From the NCBI GenBank assembly GCA_018350325.1, contig JAEVLN010000001.1:6167254-6231253 (forward strand): a stretch of DNA of 64,000 bases, read 5' to 3'. Shown piece by piece: positions 2,648 to 64,000 of the stretch. The notes under the pieces are model-generated. The model ran no database searches, was not told where the DNA came from, and was given only the letters and a program-made list of their open reading frames with translations. The translations under genes and the position numbers were made by a program. Position 1 is the first letter of the stretch; every line of letters starts with the position of its first letter. This stretch comes from Globodera rostochiensis. Its lineage: Eukaryota > Nematoda > Chromadorea > Rhabditida > Heteroderidae.

Positions 2648-5600
2648 TCACTCTTCCAACAACACGCGCTCCCTCCTCGCCTTATAGCGCCACTCCTTCT
2701 CCGCCAACTCCTGACGACTTTGCGTCTCGTACTCCTTGTGGGCATCCGGGTTCGTCTCCAGAAGACCTTTGTACATCAAACGCTGCAAAATTCCACATTA
2801 ATTTATACTGTTTTAATTTGCAATATTTAAATCAGTTAAATTTTTATGATAAAATCTTCCAAAATTCCACAATGTCGGCCATGCTGATAGCGTCCACGTT
2901 GAAGTTGTTCTGTTCAATGTCCTTCCATTTCTTGCCGACTTGCTCACCTCGATCGCGTTCACCACTGAAAACAAAACAAAAAATTACTAATTTATAGACC
3001 GGGTTTCTAAAAAATTCCGGATCAGGATCAGGACCTGGATTTACCATGATTAAAAATCCTGGGTTTACGGATATTTTGATCCTGTTTGCTTCGACGAAAA
3101 TACCAGGATTCCGGGTCTGGGTCCAGGTCCTGTCCGACCTCTATTTATTTGCAAATTTAATGGGAATTAATATGCCCACCGCTGTTGGTCCAACCGCTCC
3201 ATGACAAATGCTCTGACACAAATTTCCGGCAAAAACACATTGGAATATTTGACAATTTGGCCCCAATGCTCGCCGCAGTTCGCGCACTGCCAGCGGACAC
3301 GGGTTGTTTTTTTCTAACGGGATATTTCCTTCTTTTTAATATTTTTTCACTAATAAAATTTCCATTTTTGTAATTCAATAAAACCACAAATCCAAAAAGA
3401 CACAAATCAGAATGGGGAAATGTTAACAGGGAACGATTCGCGAGGGGCGGGGAGAGAGAAAACTTTCGAAAAGCAATGCAACAATAAACGAGAAAAAGCC
3501 AAAACAAATTTCTGTAAGAGCCCTCACCGTCAATGATTGTGTCAGCGTGTGCTTGGACCGCTTCCACACTTCCGGATCACAGCACACAAACAGGGTGCCC
3601 ATCACTGATCGGACCTGATCACTGCAACAGATCAAAGTGCCGCAGGCGCACTTCAAATTGAATCTGTTGAAATTAAAAAAATGAAAATCAAAATGTATAA
3701 TAAAATTTTAACAAAAGAGTTATTTTTTGGAAAGCATTTTCTTAAAGATTCACCGTTTTCCCATAAGCTGCTCTCTTTTGTTCCCCAGTTTCTTTTTTTC
3801 TTCATTGCGAATTACATTCATCTCTTTGGTTTTCTCTTCAATCTAAAAAAGAAATAAGCTTAATCGATAAAAAAAAAGAAATTTCGTCACATAAATAAAA
3901 GTGTTGGTTTACCTTCTTGTGAAGGGTTTGCTCCTCCTGCTCCTGCATGTCCTCAATGCAACGCATCATCTGTACAAAATAAACGTTTTGAAAAATGCAC
4001 ATTCTACCATGGCCTCTTTGCGCATGTTGCTGAGTCCTTGTTGCTCAACACCGGTGTCCAGCGCCAACAGAACGGAGTTGCTGTTTTTGTGTCGACCACG
4101 GCCTATTTTTTTTTGAAGAAATAAATGAATTTAATTAAATGAATTAAAAAATATTCAACATATTTACTAATTTGTAAGCCCCACCCCTGCGCTGAATCAT
4201 TTGACGTTCGCTGCCCACATTGTTATACCTTAATCATTTTTAAAAATTCGAAATAATAGGATGGAAACACAAATTCGCAAAAATCACTTGATGATCAGAT
4301 TACAAGCGGCGATGTTCACACCTTAAAATTAAAAAAAGGAAAAACAAATTTACCAAAAATACCTTCCTCCGCCACTGAAGTGACAACAAGCACCTTAATA
4401 TAGTAATGCATTTTTATTAAACTTTTTAGAGCTTTTAGCAAAAATGCCTGTGGCTATGTGTATATGTTGTTAAAAATGCCTTTATTATTCCCTTGCTGAA
4501 GCGCTCGCGCATCAACCGCTGCTCATCCGATGATTGGCCTCCCATTGTTCCACTCTGATTGGAGCTGACCATGTAACCGACATTCTGTTAATATAAAATT
4601 GATTAATTTAAACATAACTCGATATTTATTTTAAATTTATTTTACAACAATCATTTTGGTTATATTTGCATCTATGTTCAATTGATTCCAAAAATTACGC
4701 ACATTCAGCTGATAAAACATTGGCAATTCCAAATCTAACTCCATCAAATGCTTGGCCAGGCGTTGTGCACATGCGCGAGTGGCCACAAAAATCAGCGCGC
4801 GCGAGTCCGAATCCCTCGCGAATTGTTCATAGAGTATCTGAGGAAATAATAAATAAATCCATCAAAATTGAACACTTTCCCCATTTTTTTGCAAGAATAA
4901 AAATGACCAAAAGTACGAATTCGCATTGGGTTAAAACTAGAGCCCGGACTTGAGCTTCGAGCGAGATCTCGAGTCGAGATTCTCAAAAAAATCTAGGTCT
5001 CGAAAAATTTCGTGAAGCTCATTTTTCGTCGAGCGAGATCTCGAGGTCGAGATTTTTCGAGATCCTCGAGACGAGATCTCGTCTCGACCGGGCTCTAGTT
5101 AAAACACTTCTTTCTTTTCCCAATCGCGACAAATCCCATAAAATTTCCACACCCCTCCCCCTCCCTCCACACCCGGTAAAGACTGTTCAGAATTTCCTTC
5201 TTTTCCATGCTAAAAAGGTTTTTGCTGCTGCGCCCCGTGGACAAAAGTGCCCTTTTCTTCTGCTCTTTTTCCTCGCTTTCTGAACATTCAATATCGCGAA
5301 GTTGTTGAAAAAGTTCTGAAATATTTTTAATATTAAAATATTAATACATTTTTTTTAAAATTCAAATGACTACATACGGTATTAACTTTCGCTTGCTAAA
5401 TTGCCATTTAGCTTTATGCTAATAAGTTTGATTAGGGTATTAACAAAAAAAATTGGGTTTTTTAAAACTCACCGTTGTAACGCTTCAACAAAATTGCGTT
5501 GAACTGATTGAATTGATCATTGTCTATTTTATTTTGAATTTGAATATTAACTAAAAAATAGGATTTTTTAAAACTCACCGTTGTAACGCTTCAACAAAAT

Positions 5601-14794: not shown

Positions 14795-15965
14795 CCCCAC
14801 ATTTGCGGCGCAGACATTTGCGGTCTGCTGGAAATCAGACATTTGAGGCCCGACATTTCGCCAAAATTCAAAAACATTAATCAGCAGGGCTGGCACTTTT
14901 AGGCAAATGCCTATTTTTTCTGCGAACTTGGCACAGTGAGTTAAGCACGAAAAACATGTTTTTAGCTTTATTTGGAGCTTCTAGAGTGGACTTTATAATG
15001 CCTATTTATGCCTATTTTGAGTTTTTTGTGCCTAATGCCTATTTGTGCCTATTTCGACATTTTTGTGCCTATTTCATGCCTATTTTGACATTTTTGGCGA
15101 TTTTTTTCAAGATTTTGAGATATTTTGCAAAAAATGCCAAAAATAAAGTCAAAAATAGCAAGCCCGAAAAAAAAATTTCAAAACACCATCACGTGTGGCA
15201 AAATTTCGAGAGCGTTTTTTTCGGCATACAAAAACATTTTTGCAGACAATTGGATGCGCTTTACGCGGAAAATATTGAACAATTTTTGATTTGTAACTGC
15301 AATAAGCAGAAATGATCGCTTATTTTTTGTTTGTTAAAACCTTCGGTAAAAAATTTTATTTGCCTATTTTTGTGCCTATTTGAGGATTTTTGTGCCTATT
15401 TCATGCCTATTTTAGAACTTTTTTGTGCCTATTTAGGCGCCTATTTTGCAATTTTTAGTGCCTAAAAGTGCCAGCCCTGTTAATCAGTAAGTCCATAATT
15501 GTTTTCACTTTATGTTTCGGTAAAAGCTCTCCGTTTCGATACTATCATTATCGTATCGCAAAATCAAGCTCTAACAAAGTTTCTTGCGTTTTTCACTTAT
15601 TTGTTAGACCTCTTGTCGGATCAAGCTTGTAAGACCTGATTCTGTTTTTCTAGTGTTCCTTTTCCAATTTTAGTACGGTGATAAATCTTTTTAAATTATT
15701 TGAAATACTTAAATGCCATCCCTCATTGCATTATTAGTCCTATGTAGGTTTAAAATAGTTGAGGCTTGCATATTCCAATCATAGTGTGAAGCAAGAGTCA
15801 AGAAATAATATATTTAATTAATGTTTTTGAATTTTGGCGAAATGGCTGGCCGCCAACGTCTTATTTTGGCTGAGGCCGCAAATGTCAGGGCCGCAAATGT
15901 CCGAAAATGGGGCATGAAATTCCTTCACATTATGGCCGCAAATGTCTGGACACGTTTGTTTGGTT
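14795..15965. mobile_element. Older inverted-repeat element disrupted by a hAT-like MITE
   Basis: Words of the type CAGACATTTGCGG and GACATTTGAGGCC occupy 14795-14865. Their reverse complements (GGCCGCAAATGTC, repeated three times) occupy about 15840-15965. This makes a pair of inverted arms about 1 kb apart. A complete MITE with its own target duplication (14885-15479) lies between them, so this element is the older of the two. Boundaries are approximate. Confidence 0.5.
14885..15479. mobile_element. hAT-like MITE with perfect 8-bp TSD (TTAATCAG)
   Basis: The ends CAGGGCTGGCACTTTTAGGC and GCCTAAAAGTGCCAGCCCTG are inverted repeats. TTAATCAG flanks both sides (14877-14884, 15480-15487). CAGGG...CCCTG ends with an 8-bp duplication are diagnostic of the hAT superfamily. 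Most of the 595 bp consists of reiterated TGCCTATTT words. No transposase is encoded, so it must be mobilised in trans. Confidence 0.9.
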
Positions 15966-25000: not shown

Positions 25001-28000
25001 AGCTGAACCTCACAAAACTGAGCCATTTTAGTCTGTAAGCAAATTAAAGAAAAAATAATTGTAAATATGAATTAACAATGGTTGCTCTTTAGCGCTGTGC
25101 TTCTTCACACTAATCTTATTGAATCGCGGATAAAGTGAGTTAATGATGGAAACGCGCTCTAATTACGCCTAAGTGGAGCGACGCGCGCATGGCGTTCTTT
25201 TTGGGGGGAAATTGATGACACGAAAAAAGAAAAGCAATTTGGTAAGGGATGGATGGGTCAATTAACAAAACCATTTCAAAAAGCCTAAGTGTCTCACAAA
25301 CAGACAGAAAAAATATTTTTCCTAGCAAAAAAAAAGGGGAAGAATTGTTTTTCACAAAAAAAATTGATCATTTTAAAATTCTCACCGCTGCAATCGCCGT
25401 TTTGGAAGTTCTGTTGCTGGAGTTTGTTGTACTGCTTGAACTGTTTCTGTGCTCGCCGTTCGACGTCCGCCACAGCGTAACATCGTCACCCAAATTCTCA
25501 TCGCAAACAAAGTGCCGTCGACCAAAGTCGTTTGTGTTGTTGTTGTTGTTCTGTCGCTGACCCTTTGAAGAAGTTATCGGCAGATGGCGATGCGCCGTCG
25601 TCACCATCGGATGCCCGTCCATTGTTGTGCCTTTTTGTTGCAGTAAACGGTTGATGGGCATCGGAATATTGCTCTGATGATGACAAAGCGAAATGTCACT
25701 TTTATTCCTAGCCATCAGCAAATTGTTGCCTTGATGATGATGCTGATGGTGAAGTGATGAATTGAGACAAATCCCCTCTATTGCTGGAGTGGCGAACCTG
25801 ATTTTTGGGATTAAAATAACTGGACGAATAAAATCAATGGAGAACATGATGAGAAACAATGCGATGACTACAAAGTGTTTCGCACAAAAATGAATGATGA
25901 TGGTCAAAAAGAAGAAAAAAACACACCGTTTTTGATCCGATTTCATCGAAACTTAATTTTGTACTAAAAATTAGAGTTGGCCGGGATCGGTCGGGATTAT
26001 CCCGGTTTCTGAAATCCCAATCCCGACTTATACCAAAAATCTCATAAAAATATGCAATGATTTCGTTACGAATTCAGTCATGGACGGCAAAAAATCTTCA
26101 AAAAATTGAATAAAAAATCTTTGGCGTTCTGTAAGAATTAGTGGCGTATGGGCACGGGGGTCACTTCGGTACCAGAAATTTTGAATTTCCGGGTTCCAAT
26201 TTCTAAACCAAATCGTTTACGGATTTCCGGAATAGGACTGTTCCGGAAACTAAAGTCGTTTACAATTAAGGAACTGGAACAGTTCCGGTTACGGATTTCC
26301 GGATTCCAATTTCTAAACCAAATCGTTTACGGATTTCCGGAATAGGACTGTTCCGGAAACTAAAGTCGTTTACAATTAAGGAACTGGAACAGTTCCGGTT
26401 ACGGATTTCCGGATTCCAATTTCTAAACCAAATCGTTTACGGATTTCCGGAATCGGACTGTTCCGGAAACTAAACTCGTTTACAATTCAGGAATGGAACA
26501 GTTCCGGAAACAAAAGTAGTTTACGGATTTCCGGATTGCGATTTCTAAACCAAATCGTTTACGGATTTCCGGATTGCGATTTCTAAACCAAATCGTTTAC
26601 GGATTTCCGGATTGCGATTTCTCTGTTCCGGAAACTAAAGTCGTTTACAATTAAGGAACTGGAACAGTTCCGGAAGCAAAAGTCGTTTACGGATTTCCGG
26701 ATTGCGATTTCTAAACCAAATCGTTTACGGATTTCCGGATTGCGATTCTAAACCAAATCGTTTACGGATTTCCGGATTGCGATTTCTACTGTTCCGGAAA
26801 CTAAAGTCGTTTACAATTCAGGAATGGAACAGGTCCGGAAGCAAAAGTCGTTTACGGATTTCCGGTTGCAATTTCTAAACCAAATCGTTTACGGATTTCC
26901 GGATTGCGATTCTAAACCAAATCGTTTACGGATTTCCGGATTGCGATTTCTAAACCAAATCGTTTACGGATTTCCGGAATAGGACTGTTCCGGAAACTAA
27001 AGTCGTTTACAATTAAGGAACTGGAACAGTTCCGGAAGCAAAAGTCGTTTACGGATTTCCGGATTGCGATTTCTAAACCAAATCGTTTACGGATTTCCGG
27101 ATTGCGATTCTAAACCAAATCGTTTACGGATTTCCGGATTGCGATTTCTACTGTTCCGGAAACTAAAGTCGTTTACAATTCAGGAATGGAACAGGTCCGG
27201 AAACAAAAGTCGTTTACGGATTTCCGGATTGCAATTTCTAAACCAAATCGTTTACGGATTTCCGGATTGCGATTTCTAAACCAAATCGTTTACGGATTTC
27301 CGGATTGCGATTTCTAAACCAAATCGTTTACGGATTTCCGGATTGCGATTTCTACTGTTCCGGAATCTAAAGTCGTTTACAATTCAGGAATGTAACAGGT
27401 CCGGAAGCAAAAGACGTTTACGGATTTCCGGATTGCGATTTCTAAACCAAATCGTTTACGGATTTCCGGATTGCGATTTCTACTGTTCCGGAAACTAAAG
27501 TCGTTTACAATTAAGGAACTGGAACAGTTCCGGAAGCAAAAGTCGTTTACGGATTTCCGGATTGAAATCAGAGAGGCTAGATCACCTTCGAGAAATATGG
27601 CAACAGGCTCCAAAAATATGGCATTTTTATGGCATCGAGGGTTCAAAAATATGGCATTTTTATGGCAGTCTTTTTAAGGAATTTTCAAAAAAAAATTTTT
27701 TTTTTAAATTTTGCTTCATTTTGGGAGGGAGGGGTTTGGCGGTGCCGATAGGTTTCTGGCTTCCCTGACTGAAGTGTGTGTGCGGCACAAAGTGATGTCA
27801 TTACCAGGCCGTACCAAGATGTACTTACCAGGAGTGCCGGTACCAAGCCCCAACATATGTAAGCCCTACACGGGGAGGGGGGACGGCACAACTCACTTTG
27901 GTGGCCTCTGTTGCCCCCGGAGCGTTCCTCCACGTCCGTCCTCCCCCACTCTCATCGCCTCGCCGTCACTTTTGTTTGGCGTTCTCGGCTGTGGCAACAC

Positions 28001-31000: not shown

Positions 31001-34000
31001 TAACATATATTCGTCCTCTGCTGCTGCTGCATTTTTCGTCGTCGTCGTTGTGGTGTCGTCCCCAACCAATTGGACGATGCCGTGGCACGCAATTTCCACG
31101 GACGGATGACGCTTTAAGACAAATGACGCGGACACCGACGCCGACTGCAACGACAAAGGCTCCGCGTCGTCGTCGTCGTCGCTCGCGGTGATCAGTTGAG
31201 GCGGCACAAGGCGATCCAAAGAGAAGCGCGGGCGTTGCCTTTCCTGAAAGTGCCCTCAAGCGAATTGTTGTTTTTTGTTGAAGCAACAGCAAAAGCAGCT
31301 GTTTATAATCGGATTTTCTAACTTTATTCCCTCACTTTTTGCTACACTTAATGGACGACGACGCTCGGGGGTATATTATAAAGCGGCGCCGCCCGATCAA
31401 ACGATCTCAGCTGGTTTAAAGCATTTTGCTTCCTAACTGATCAGTGATCATAAACATCGCCCGCCGATCCCCCGAAATGTGCACGCCCATTCAATGCATC
31501 GAAATGAACTATTAAAAGTAGAGATCGGACCGATCGAAAATCCGATCGACAAATTTTTGAGTGATCTAGAACGAATCTCAATCGTTTAATTTCCAAAATT
31601 TTGCGAGATTCGAAATTTTTTGACATTCTCGATTTGATCGGTCCTCAAGTCCGAACTCTAATTAAAAGAAGTTTTGCTTGCTTAACATCAATTGGACACA
31701 TTGAGCTAAATATTAGTGATGCTCGAGAGTCTCGGTCTCTCGGGTCTCGAACACCGAAAAAAAAGAAGTTTCCGGGGTTTTTTGTGGTCTCGGTCTTTGA
31801 GTCTCGGTAAAAAATTCGGGTCTCGAGCATCACTATTAAATTCTTTGTTCCATTTTAAATTTTTGAATTCCTCCACCTCTTCCGCCTCCGGGCCCGCGCT
31901 TGCGGCGCCTTCAAATGACGTCATGTCAGCTGCCGCCGCCGCCGCCGCCGCCGCCGCAGGCGGTGAAAAGCATTCGCGCAGCAATTCTTCCAACAAAAAA
32001 TGATTTTGTTCGACGCTTTTCGGAGGCTTTTTGACCGTCGGAATATTCGGGACAATTCGCTTGGGTTCCTCTGAATTAGCAGAAAACGACATTTTTCCGA
32101 AAAATAAAAATATTATTAGTTGGAAAAAAACTCTGACTGAATTCGAAGCCGAAGCTTATGAAAGGAGGGAGCCTAAAAAGGGGGGGGGGCTTTTTGGCGA
32201 TAGGTCAAAATGCCCTTAGGCTTAATTAGCATTTTGACCGTTTTATGCTTCTGGTTGGTATTTTTGACCGTTTTATGCTTCTGGTTGGCATTTCGTCCTG
32301 ACACGGGGCGCTTTTTTGCCGATGAATGGCTTTTGCCCTACCCAAAGGTAATTGACCACAAAATATGTTAATTTTTGCATTCTACAATTGGGAAGAAAAT
32401 GGAAACAAACCAACTGATTCATCCATTTGATCACAAATTTAATTCACAAAATACGATGGGCTTAATTACTGTACGATTGATCAATTACGGAAGGCAAAAC
32501 AACGAGAATATTTAAACATTGACAAAATCAAAACTATTTTAGGAACAATCATTGCAGGTCAATCGGATCAATGTGCGCCAAAAAGGTTCAAAAATAGCCG
32601 AAAAATCCCCCCGGGGGGAGGGGCAAAACAACTGACGCGACACTGCTTAGCCCCCGCGGGGGCAGAAGAAGAGAGTGATGGGGGCAGGCAGAGAAGCAGT
32701 GAGACGGAGAGAATCTGCTGCTGCTGGGGGGGGGGGGGGCAGAATGACGCCAATTCGGGGGCAGAATGGGCGAACGAACAGCACATTTTGTTGCGGGGAT
32801 ACATCCACACACTGTACAAACAAAAAGACCCCGGAGGGGAGGGAGGGGGGGGGGTCGTTCGATGGTTACGGCCCCCCGGGGGGGGGGGGGGGGGAGGAAG
32901 TTAAAGAAGAGATTTGCACCGTTGTTCTCGAGTGTATTGTATGAGCATTTTTAAGAGGGAAGAGAGCGCTTATTTTTTAGGGTTTGGCTTCCTTAAGAGA
33001 ACAGACATTGGCGGGAGGGATTCATGCGCAGTTCGGGCGCCCTTCCTGTCCTGCTCGTCCCCGGCGGCGGTGGTGGAAGAAATGAATGTTGGGGGGGAGG
33101 CGGGCCGGGGTTTGTGGAAGAAGTAATAAACATGAAGGAAGTAGGTATATTGGTTGGGTGATGATGATTTGATGGTGGTGGTGGTCGTCGTGGCGGGGGT
33201 GGGAAGGGGCGATCCGTGAAGGGTGTTTAGGGCGGCGGTATCGATTTGATTGTCCCCCGCCCCCCCGTCCCCCCCCCCCCCCCCCCCCCCCCCGTCGACG
33301 GGGCACACTTTCCCATAGGCGACAGAAGAATGAGAATGCTTTGAAAGGATGGGGAAAGGAATGAATGTGAATGAACGAATTGCACGGGTCATCTCACCTT
33401 CATATTTACTTACAATCCCCCAAAGGCTCCCCCCCCCCCCCCCTCACACGCACAACACTCAATTCAATTCAATTCAATTTCAACATGCTCACATGAGAGT
33501 AATCCGACCGATCGGGGATTGTTTTGTACAATACACAAAACACCAAAATATTCTATTTTAGGGGGGGGGCGGGTGGCGGCACGCTGAAAGTGCCATGGAT
33601 GGATTGGTTCAGTGAACGCCGGGGGGGCATTGGGGGGGGGGCGGGAGAATGAGTTAAAAACAACGTTCAAAAATGCTTTACCTCCTCCGTCATTTGTTTT
33701 GTGTCCTCCGATGGATTTCGGCGGCTTTTGTTGGACGACCATTGGCAGTCGCTTTCCCTGAACTTTCGGTCGGCCGATTGTCCGTTGGCCGTTCCTTTTA
33801 ATGTTTGGGACAAATGGCCTAAATGTTTGAACGTCCGCGCACCTCTGCTGTTGTTGTTGTTGTTGTTGTTGTTTGCTAATTCCTTCTTTTGGTGTGCACG
33901 AGGAAGTGGGCTAAATTTTGAGTGTTTTGGGAAGGAACGAAGGGCTGGGCCGAGAACTAGATCAAAATGATCAGACCCTCCCAGACTAAGCAGGCCAAAA

Positions 34001-61305: not shown

Positions 61306-64000
61306 ATGAATAATAACCGCCGGTGCCGTTGCCATTGCCAAAAGTCGTCTTTAAAATTTGGCCAAATTCTCTTTGGTTGTGCCCTCCTTTTCCCGCCATT
61401 TTATCCCCAAATTTTGTCGGCACAACAATTTATTGAACGAATTCGCATCCAATTTTTGTTGCCGCCTGCTAAACACCCGAGCACACAGGTCCCCCCCCCC
61501 CTCCCCCACAAATTGGGGGCGTACTTTCACGCCGAATTCTGACGATTTGTTTAGGCCCGGGATGACTTTGCCCGTGCCATGGGTCCCCGGGGAATGGCAC
61601 AAATGCGCCAGGTACGTGCCGACCTTGTCGAACTCCGGCGGCGTCTCATGGCCACTTGGGAGCGGCAGGACCGGTTTGAACCCGGCGCTTTGCTTGCCGA
61701 GGCCATGGTCAGTGAGTGGGGGGGGGGGGTCTTCTTGAAAGTTGGCACATTTTCATCCCCGCAGGCGATGGCACGTCAACGGAAGGCCAACCCGGACAGA
61801 CTGTCCAAAGGCAGCGAAAGCGTTTCGATGCTAAACGGTGCCATCCGCGACTTCCTTTTTCAGGTCGGTTTTGAAAATGAATTATTATTACTTTTTTAGG
61901 AGAATTTAATTGTGATCGGACCGATCGAGATCGATCCAAATCTTGATCGGGTGGTCCTCAAGTCCGTTTTCAATTAGCTATTTTAGAGTGACATTCTGTT
62001 GAGCGCAAACCAGACTGGCGAAATGCTCAGAGAGATGGCGGAGGGGCGCGAGGACGACGACGTGGCAGAGATTGTACTGGTCGAGGAGGACGCCGACGAC
62101 GACGCCGAGACGGACGGAGGGGGGCGCCGGCGTCGCCGGCGACAGGCGCAGACGGGGCTCAACTTCCCGCGCAACCAGTGGAACCCGGCACGGCCAGTGC
62201 CATTCATTTTTGACCCCAAACTTGGTAGGGTTGCCAATTTTGTCTCACAAAATAGATAGATCCATTTCCTAATCGATCAATAATAATAATTTTGGCATTT
62301 TTTTTTAATCTGCCTATGGCAAAAAATTGTGTAGGAAATTCCGCGCGGAAGGCCGTCCGTCAGGCCGTGCAGTTCTGGACCGCCCACACGTGCCTGTCGT
62401 TCGTCGAAAACGGCGCCGGCTTCCCGCGCGTCAAAATTTTTTCTGGCGGCGGATGTTTCAGGTCGAAATTATTTAAATTTTAAAAAATTTGGGTTCAATT
62501 TTCAATTTTTTTTTTCAGTCAGGTCGGCAAGGCCTTTCACCAAAGAGAGCAGGTGGGTGAGACGATTGGTTGTTGTGCTTAATTACATCACTAATTAATC
62601 ATTCACATTTGAAAGGTTATTTCGTTGGGTCGCGGCTGTGAACAGGTGGGACACAAATGGCACTGATCAGAAGAAACAGCGATCGATCAGTTCCGGTCCC
62701 TCTTTTTCCCCAATTTTAAGTTTGGAATTGCGGCTCACGAACTCGGCCACACGCTGGGCTTCTTCCACGGCCAAGCGCGTGCCGATCGGGACCAATTTGT
62801 GAACATTGTCTACTCAAATTTGAGGCATTTTCCCCCGGGGGGCCAAAACAATTCGACGCATTTCCCCTTAAAGTCCTCAAATGGCCGGCCAATTTGCCAA
62901 ACAAAACAGCGAAAACAACAACAATTTTGGCGTCAAGTACGACTACGGAAGCGTAAGAAAGTGGCACCGGGCCGCAAAAGCGTAATATAATCGTTCATTA
63001 AACCGCAGATAATGCACTACTCGGACACGGACTCGACTACAAGTCGGGTGACAATGTTGGCAAAAGAAGTAAGCATTAGTTGCACACCGGCGGGGATGTA
63101 ACCAAATGCCAAAAACAAAATGCCGGGATGTAACCGGATGCCAAAAAATGCCGGGATGTAACCGGATGCCAAAAAAAAATGCCGGGATGTAACCGGATGC
63201 CAAAAAAAAATGCCGGGATGTAACCGGATGCCAAAAAATGCCGGGAAGTAACCGGATGCCAAAAAATGCCGGGAATAGAAGAACTTGTGCCATTCATTCA
63301 ACAACCTTTCAGTCCGTCTACCAGCACACAATGGGCAACAACGTGGCGCCGTCCTTTCTCGACGTGTTGGAGGTTTGGTGGGGACAAAAAAAATGTGCCA
63401 AAACGCGCCAAATGTGAGAGAGAACGTGACGTTGTTGTAGATGAACCTCTACTACAAGTGCACGGACAGATGCAAAAAAGACGGGGCCAATTGTACAAAC
63501 GGCGGATACCGGTCCGTGCCCAACAAAACTTTGAACAAATTTGAGGGGGGGGGGACACACGGCACACAATGGGCCCAATTTACCAGACACCCCCGCAACT
63601 GCTCCATGTGCTTGTGCCCCTCCGGCTTTGGCGGCTTTGACTGTTCCGAGCGCGGCCCACCGGAGAATGGCGCCGCCCCGGCGGGCTGTGGCGAAACTGT
63701 TGAGGTGTGCCAAAGACTTCTTAACAAAGTCAGAAGCCTCCGTGTTTAGTAGAGATGATGTTCGAGAGTCTCGGGTCTTGGACCGACAAAAGGTCTCGGT
63801 CTCAATTCTCGGGGTTAAGTCTCGTGGTCAAGTCTCGGGTTCGAATCCCAGTCTTAAGTCTCGGGGTCAAGTCTCGGGTCTCGAGTCTCGGGGCCAAGTC
63901 TCGAGTCTCGGGGTCAAGTCTCGAGTCTCGGGGCCAAGTCTCGGGTCTCGAGTCTCAAACATCCCTAGTGTTTAGGCCTCTGAGGGCGGCGACCTTCAAG
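61306..64000 (+). CDS. Nematode astacin metalloprotease (NAS family) with EGF module, 3' end outside the window
   Basis: Exon 1 (61306-61488) is a signal peptide (FGQILFGCALLFPPFYPQ). Exons 61555-61707, 61765-61863 and 61987-62224 form the propeptide, ending at a basic site (GGGRRRRRRQAQTG) just before the mature start. The catalytic domain begins NFPRNQWNPARPVPFIFD. It continues with AVQFWTAHTCLSFVENGAGF, then IAAHELGHTLGFFHGQARAD with the zinc motif HELGHTLGFFH, and the Met-turn YDYGSIMHYSD. An EGF-like part reads LYYKCTDRCKKDGANCTNGG, then CSMCLCPSGFGGFDC. A CUB-like segment begins CGETVEASEGGD at the window edge. A GC-AG intron (about 62827-62873) is needed to connect YSNL with SPQMAGQF. 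Such astacins process cuticle collagen or matrix proteins. A MITE occupies the last visible intron. Confidence 0.92.
61913..61975. mobile_element. Decayed TAGAGATCGG-subfamily MITE in an astacin intron
   Basis: GATCGGACCGATCGAGATCG on the left and GGTCCTCAAGTCCG on the right are the two characteristic ends of this subfamily. The terminal bases and target duplication are eroded. Confidence 0.55.
63075..63285. repeat. 28-31-bp minisatellite, eight copies, astacin intron
   Basis: The unit GCCGGGATGTAACCGGATGC plus CAAAAAAT repeats eight times. The A run varies in length. It lies between the exon ending MLAKE and the exon starting SVYQHTMGNN. Confidence 0.9.
63750..63967. mobile_element. hAT-like MITE with perfect 8-bp TSD that contains a splice acceptor
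   Basis: The ends are TAGAGATGATGTTCGAGAG and CTCAAACATCCCTA. GTGTTTAG occurs at 63742-63749 and again at 63968-63975. The downstream copy ends at the AG of the acceptor for the exon starting GCCTCTGAGGGC. The interior reiterates GTCTCGGGTCTCGAG. It is 218 bp. Confidence 0.9.

What the first reader, a model, noticed from the sequence alone, without database searches (positions are those of the whole stretch)
63742..63975. A hAT-like MITE whose target duplication duplicates a 3' splice site
The 8-bp duplication GTGTTTAG flanks the element exactly. Without the element the exon ending CGETVE would join ASEGGD through an intron of about 45 nt ending GTGTTTAG. Insertion therefore landed on the acceptor, copied it, and lengthened the intron to about 270 nt without touching the exon. 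A mobile element that lands on an acceptor and carries the acceptor in its own duplication resembles intron-growth or introner-like behaviour.
Basis: partly seen in the sequence, partly recalled or inferred. Interest (0 to 1): 0.8.

Follow-up and report, generated by a model that had tools for sequence, protein, structure and literature searches.

The report
Jumping element on a splice acceptor
A short non-coding jumping element in a nematode landed exactly on the end of what was very probably an existing intron and copied that splice signal, likely because the signal resembles the element's favoured landing site, so the intron grew while the coding sequence stayed whole.

Summary
GTGTTTAG (63742-63749, 63968-63975) flanks a 218-bp element with imperfect inverted ends, in intron 63705-63975 of an astacin-type gene. 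A 17-intron model stays open across the junction, and Heterodera and Meloidogyne homologues read continuously there. Minus the element and one repeat, the intron is 45 nt.

The element belongs to a hAT-type MITE family: 937 end matches against 6 for a control; other copies' duplications fit nTnnnnAn; a 4.5-kb element with near-identical ends holds a hAT domain. A second acceptor hit lies in a GH32 gene, with six element-free, closely related paralogues.

The introner reading is not supported: the evidence points to a lengthened older intron. Duplications ending in AG (54 of 218) do not exceed those ending in AC (40 of 100 listed among the other 164). Target preference largely explains the coincidence: the acceptor octamer ranks first of 38 windows in the 45-nt intron, with 62% of target weight. 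Not tested: which AG is spliced, and an empty site at the focal locus itself.

The parts
63742..63749 (+). first copy of the 8-bp target duplication GTGTTTAG (upstream, potentially competing AG)
   Evidence: sequence; use of this AG would give an in-frame TAG stop at once
63750..63967 (.). 218-bp non-autonomous hAT-type element (MITE)
   Evidence: ends TAGAGATG.../...CATCCCTA; family in the genome
63798..63956 (.). internal diverged GTCTCGGGGTCAA-like repeats of the element
   Evidence: family D1
63968..63975 (+). second copy of GTGTTTAG, last 8 nt of the intron; its AG is the acceptor in use (inferred)
   Evidence: reading frame and homologues
63705..63975 (+). intron holding the element, donor GTGTGCC, 271 nt (45 nt without element and one repeat)
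63587..63704 (+). upstream exon ending CGETVE (EGF-like part, named by eye)
63976..64000 (+). start of the downstream exon ASEGGDLQ..., CUB-like part; runs on past the window end

Best explanation
A hAT-family transposase inserted a short non-autonomous element into a pre-existing 45-nt intron of an astacin-type gene. The target octamer GTGTTTAG was both the intron's 3' splice site and a good hAT target (T at position 2, A at position 7). The staggered cut copied the octamer, leaving one acceptor on each side of the element. The distal copy still abuts the exon, so splicing from the old donor to the distal AG gives the old mRNA, and the insertion was tolerated. Shown here: element, duplication, family, reading frame across the junction, target match. 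Inferred: the order of events at this locus, use of the distal AG, tolerance.
For: Exact duplication and inverted ends. 937 end matches with up to 2 mismatches, reversed-pattern control 6. In 29 exact duplications read both ways, T at position 2 in 52 of 58 and A at position 7 in 52 of 58, the pattern given for the hAT transposon Hermes in PMC10368747 (passages read). A 4.5-kb element, C10:1066935-1071486, has ends TAGAGCTGTTCGAGA (a subgroup one base off), ATATGCAA on both sides, and a hAT dimerisation domain between. Junction. Target weight: the acceptor octamer ranks 1 of 38 windows with 62% of the weight, matrix made without the focal, GH32 and same-gene duplications. Parallel event: GH32 gene with duplication ATGTTCAG ending at the acceptor; L154-L159 are element-free paralogues. 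Use of the upstream AG would give a stop at once.
Against: No empty site for the focal locus: its CUB part has only weak other matches in the genome (46% and 34% identity), and no relative's genome was on hand. No RNA evidence. The 5' inverted end is diverged. The target matrix comes from insertions that survived. The six GH32 empty sites are one near-identical cluster on C80 and read ATGTTTAG, one base off the duplicated ATGTTCAG.
Confidence: 0.87

Rival explanations
1. Introner-like gain: the element created the intron and recruits its splice sites through the duplication.
For: The duplication starts with GT and ends with AG, so element plus both copies could in principle be spliced out; splice sites recruited from target duplications are described for introners (PMC9860276, passages read).
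Against: Splicing GT of copy 1 to AG of copy 2 would keep 37 extra nt (63705-63741) and break the frame. H. schachtii and Meloidogyne proteins lack such residues. An Aphelenchoides protein has 13 extra residues exactly here, which would fit an older unspliced intron (inference). In the GH32 case six paralogues have the intron without the element.
Confidence: 0.04
2. The family is drawn to 3' splice sites beyond its sequence preference, for example through transcription or chromatin.
For: Two independent acceptor hits (astacin, GH32), and one element that begins 8 nt into a P450 intron, right after its donor octamer (L045). AG ends are 54 of 218, against 15.3% G in the background.
Against: AC ends are at least as common (40 of the 100 listed among the other 164) although the background has as much C as G (15.4% and 15.3%). 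Besides the focal copy, 2 of 41 complete copies, one duplicated event, are proven acceptor hits.
Confidence: 0.07
3. The upstream AG copy is used in part of the transcripts, so the element is partly exonised or triggers decay and acts as a regulatory switch.
For: Both acceptor copies are identical, and the upstream one keeps the original 45-nt spacing from the donor.
Against: It would give a stop codon at once; there are no transcript data.
Confidence: 0.15

Closest known systems
hAT superfamily MITEs (non-autonomous Ac/Hermes/hobo-type elements; group names recalled)
   Same: 8-bp duplication, T at 2 and A at 7, short inverted ends starting TAG[AG]G, many copies, a larger element with near-identical ends and a hAT dimerisation domain in the same genome
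   Different: nothing essential; the focal copy's 5' end has one extra base
Introners with splice sites recruited from the target duplication (PMC9860276, passages read)
   Same: DNA element with inverted ends whose target duplication holds a splice site
   Different: here an older intron was lengthened; no new intron is indicated
Plant Ds/dSpm elements spliced from transcripts (recalled, no call)
   Same: element removed by splicing with host splice sites near the insertion
   Different: as recalled, those sit in exons and are removed imperfectly; here the insertion is inside an intron

Membership tests
hAT MITE | 8-bp target duplication | tested here: met
   exact in the focal copy; 31 of 42 complete copies exact, 11 with one mismatch
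hAT MITE | target consensus nTnnnnAn | tested here: met
   52 of 58 at each key position; the focal octamer fits
hAT MITE | short terminal inverted repeats | tested here: met
   family ends TAGGGATGTTCGAGA in inverted order; imperfect in the focal copy
hAT MITE | related larger element with hAT transposase | tested here: met
   C10 element with near-identical ends (TAGAGCTG subgroup), ATATGCAA on both sides, Dimer_Tnp_hAT match between; only its ends and 251 bp inside were read
hAT MITE | mobilised by that transposase | not testable with these tools
   needs a transposition assay
Introner | insertion creates a new intron in coding sequence | tested here: not met
   an older 45-nt intron is implied by frame and homologues; for GH32 shown by six element-free paralogues; no direct empty site for the focal locus
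Introner | many copies each forming an intron end to end | tested here: inconclusive
   no copy looked at was recognised as an intron with ends equal to the element's, but no annotation was at hand and most flanks were not gene-modelled

The most novel reading that the evidence does not exclude
In nematodes the 3' splice site is a compact signal of seven intronic bases that reads like a hAT target (nTnnnnAG), and the 8-bp hAT duplication is just long enough to copy it whole. Acceptors would then be recurrent, almost harmless landing sites, making acceptor-copying hAT insertions a standing route by which short nematode introns grow, and a source of tandem acceptors.
Probability: 0.35. Interest if true: 0.55.

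Novelty: new member of a known kind. Interest (0 to 1): 0.4.

Why it matters
It offers a simple sequence reason why a DNA transposon can land on a splice acceptor without harm: target preference and splice signal share one octamer, and the duplication copies the signal whole. That makes a testable prediction for intron-length evolution in nematodes, and it cautions against calling every splice-site duplication an introner.

Tried and rejected
Introner gain: rejected on frame and homologues and on the GH32 parallel. Searching the genome with the whole element mostly matched internal GTCTCGGG repeats, so the ends were used instead. A focal empty site was sought among paralogues, but the CUB part has only weak other matches. 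A codon score trained on the astacin gene was too weak to call exons alone: reversed flanks reached 20.3 bits, 109 stretches tried. So the two acceptor cases called proven rest on frame plus homologues (astacin) or frame plus paralogues and a Pfam match just under its cut-off (GH32). The other genic placements are marked as likely. The two element scans used different rules: one search listed 40 elements, one search listed 42; one search dropped the elements of L034 and L114 and added the focal one, L038, L067 and one in the window. Literature listings (titles and starts of abstracts seen) showed no report of hAT duplications on nematode acceptors; that is no proof of absence. Three further candidate elements in the window were checked for acceptors and none was recognised.

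Full report
What is there. The window end lies in a plus-strand gene for an astacin-type metalloprotease. Removing 17 introns gives one open frame. Pfam finds Astacin at 1.1e-58, ShK at 1.3e-6 and CUB at 3.1e-3, the last below its cut-off; the EGF-like part is named by eye. Named homologues are from Meloidogyne, Heterodera, Aphelenchoides and Soboliphyme. Two of the 17 introns start with GC, a trait reported as raised in Heteroderidae, 3.46% in Globodera rostochiensis (PMC4901422, passages read). The genome is therefore probably that of a cyst nematode or close kin; the species is not shown.

The junction. One exon ends CGETVE at 63704; the next begins ASEGGDLQ at 63976. H. schachtii P0002 reads CGETVQAHEGELQELSGNVS and Meloidogyne P0001 CGATIKANNSDFQILNGEVS. 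An A. besseyi protein (P0005) has 13 extra residues exactly here, which would fit an unspliced intron at the same place (inference). The intron is 271 nt, or 45 nt without the element and one repeat. The 15 of 17 introns without an element of this family run from 42 to 244 nt.

The element. GTGTTTAG flanks 218 bp. The ends match TAGRGATGTTCGAGANTC at 937 places with up to 2 mismatches, against 6 for the reversed pattern; an element with two good ends counts twice. In the sequence held, 42 end pairs carry an 8-bp duplication (31 exact, 11 with one mismatch), and none do in the reversed sequence. The 42 include the focal copy, two copies of one GH32 insertion and one doubtful copy at window 26233-26350. 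Some loci were brought in by element or acceptor-like patterns, so the set is not a random sample; the two GH32 copies were however also in the unselected list of end matches (L074, L102). Of the 29 exact duplications (focal not among them), read both ways, 52 of 58 have T at position 2 and 52 of 58 have A at position 7. This is the nTnnnnAn preference stated for Hermes (PMC10368747, passages read). The search for the hAT dimerisation domain reported 100 matches, 150 of 156 candidates scored. One, C10:1069108-1069323, lies between two ends of the TAGAGCTG subgroup 4.5 kb apart (C10:1066935-1071486), flanked by ATATGCAA on both sides. Only its ends and 251 bp inside were read.

Same gene, second element. 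A 161-bp relative lies in intron 17 (L001:2456-2616, duplication CTGTACAT), in mid-intron; without it and one repeat that intron is 53 nt.

Second acceptor case. In a GH32 gene (GH32C at 2.4e-4, 21.6 bits against a cut-off of 21.9) the duplication ATGTTCAG ends at the acceptor...KRTW with its last codon split TG|G, then VTSNKRLVVYN. It occurs in two gene copies, C80 and C21 (L133, L130), best read as one insertion later duplicated. One search found 19 matching exons; besides these two, 12 were fetched and 5 were not. Six (L154-L159), a near-identical cluster on C80, show the whole intron without the element and with a single ATGTTTAG, one base off the duplicated octamer. Of the other six, L160 and L161 carry other repeats, L162 and L163 have other upstream sequence, L164 has a shorter intron, and L165 does not align well. 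This is a paralogous empty site for the mechanism, not for the focal locus.

Why the acceptor. A matrix from 26 distinct duplications, leaving out the focal, GH32, same-gene and doubtful ones, was run over the 17 introns with the two elements left out. In the 45-nt focal intron the acceptor octamer ranks first of 38 windows with 62% of the weight (71% with 28 duplications). The GH32 acceptor ranks 4 of 120 with 5.9%. Over the 17 introns the acceptor window holds 10.2% on average, 6.9% without the focal intron, against 1.9% if windows were equal; in 20,000 draws of one random window per intron, 0.5% reached the observed sum without the focal intron. Donor windows average 5.1%. In this gene, then, acceptors, and to a lesser degree donors, look like hAT targets. 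But the range is wide: 9 of the 17 acceptors, by their octamers, lack T at position 2. In C. elegans the 3' splice site is a conserved UUUUCAG/R motif (PMC4889670, start of abstract seen), which fits the same register. This rests on one gene and on surviving insertions.

Is there a pull beyond sequence? With exact ends of the family and its TAGRGCTG subgroup, 54 ends follow TnnnnAG and 164 follow TnnnnA[A, C or T]. Of the 164, 100 are listed: 40 AC, 49 AT, 11 AA. Segmental duplicates were not removed. Background nTnnnnAn sites end A 41.7%, C 15.4%, G 15.3%, T 27.6%. AG (24.8%) is above background but not above AC, so no special pull to acceptors is seen. Of the 54 AG ends, 39 were read, 20 of them on the upstream side only, and 15 were not fetched. 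Two of the 39, the duplicated GH32 insertion, are proven acceptor hits; long introns would have been missed. Likely placements of others: an element directly after the octamer AAG|GTAATCAG at a P450 donor (p450 at 1.3e-4, 21.4 bits against a cut-off of 22.8), second duplication not found (L045); elements 10 and 13 nt after donors recognised by eye (L144, whose exon matched no Pfam family, and L145); one 27 nt before a likely acceptor (L052, PAP_RNA-bind at 0.0057, below cut-off); one near a donor in a GH2 gene (L090, 6.9e-18). So besides the focal copy, 2 of 41 complete copies, one event, are proven acceptor hits, a lower bound. A rough expectation: about 111,000 introns (3,835 GC-AG introns being 3.46% in G. 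rostochiensis), about half with a fitting acceptor (8 of 17 here), against 7 to 8 million nTnnnnAn sites (0.074 per base in the window, 0.088 in all sequence held) gives 0.6 to 0.8% per insertion. One event in about 40 is no clear excess, and the focal copy was pointed out beforehand.

How it works. The transposase cut the acceptor octamer in a staggered way, and repair copied it. The distal copy keeps the old exon border. If the upstream copy were used, translation would stop at once (VE*). Use of the distal AG is therefore likely but not shown.

Verdict. The introner reading is not supported. The remaining interest is the shared octamer, hAT target and nematode acceptor.

Noticed in passing
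L001:2456-2616 (about 700 bases past the window end): A second MITE of the same family, duplication CTGTACAT, in intron 17 of the same gene; without it and one repeat that intron is 53 nt.
   Followed up: yes
window 62825-62873 and L001:2001-2042: Two GC-AG introns in the astacin gene, supported by the open frame and homologues.
   Followed up: partly
window 63069-63312: A 244-nt intron with tandem GGGATGTAACCGGATGCC-like units.
   Followed up: no
window 4938-5097, 14885-15479, 31519-31660: Three other candidate elements with exact 8-bp duplications (GTTAAAAC, TTAATCAG, ATTAAAAG) and inverted ends of other sequence; no acceptor recognised next to them.
   Followed up: partly
L045:1450-1510: P450 gene: a family element begins 8 nt into the intron, right after the donor octamer GTAATCAG, so the donor may have been the target; the second duplication was not found.
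   Followed up: partly
L160 and L161: GH32 paralogues with different repeats ending CACTA just before the same exon, as if this intron collects elements.
   Followed up: no
G000:C10:1066935-1071486: 4.5-kb element with ends of the TAGAGCTG subgroup, duplication ATATGCAA and a hAT dimerisation domain inside: candidate source of transposase.
   Followed up: partly
P0005 (Aphelenchoides besseyi protein): 13 extra residues exactly at the focal intron position, possibly an unspliced intron in the public gene model.
   Followed up: no
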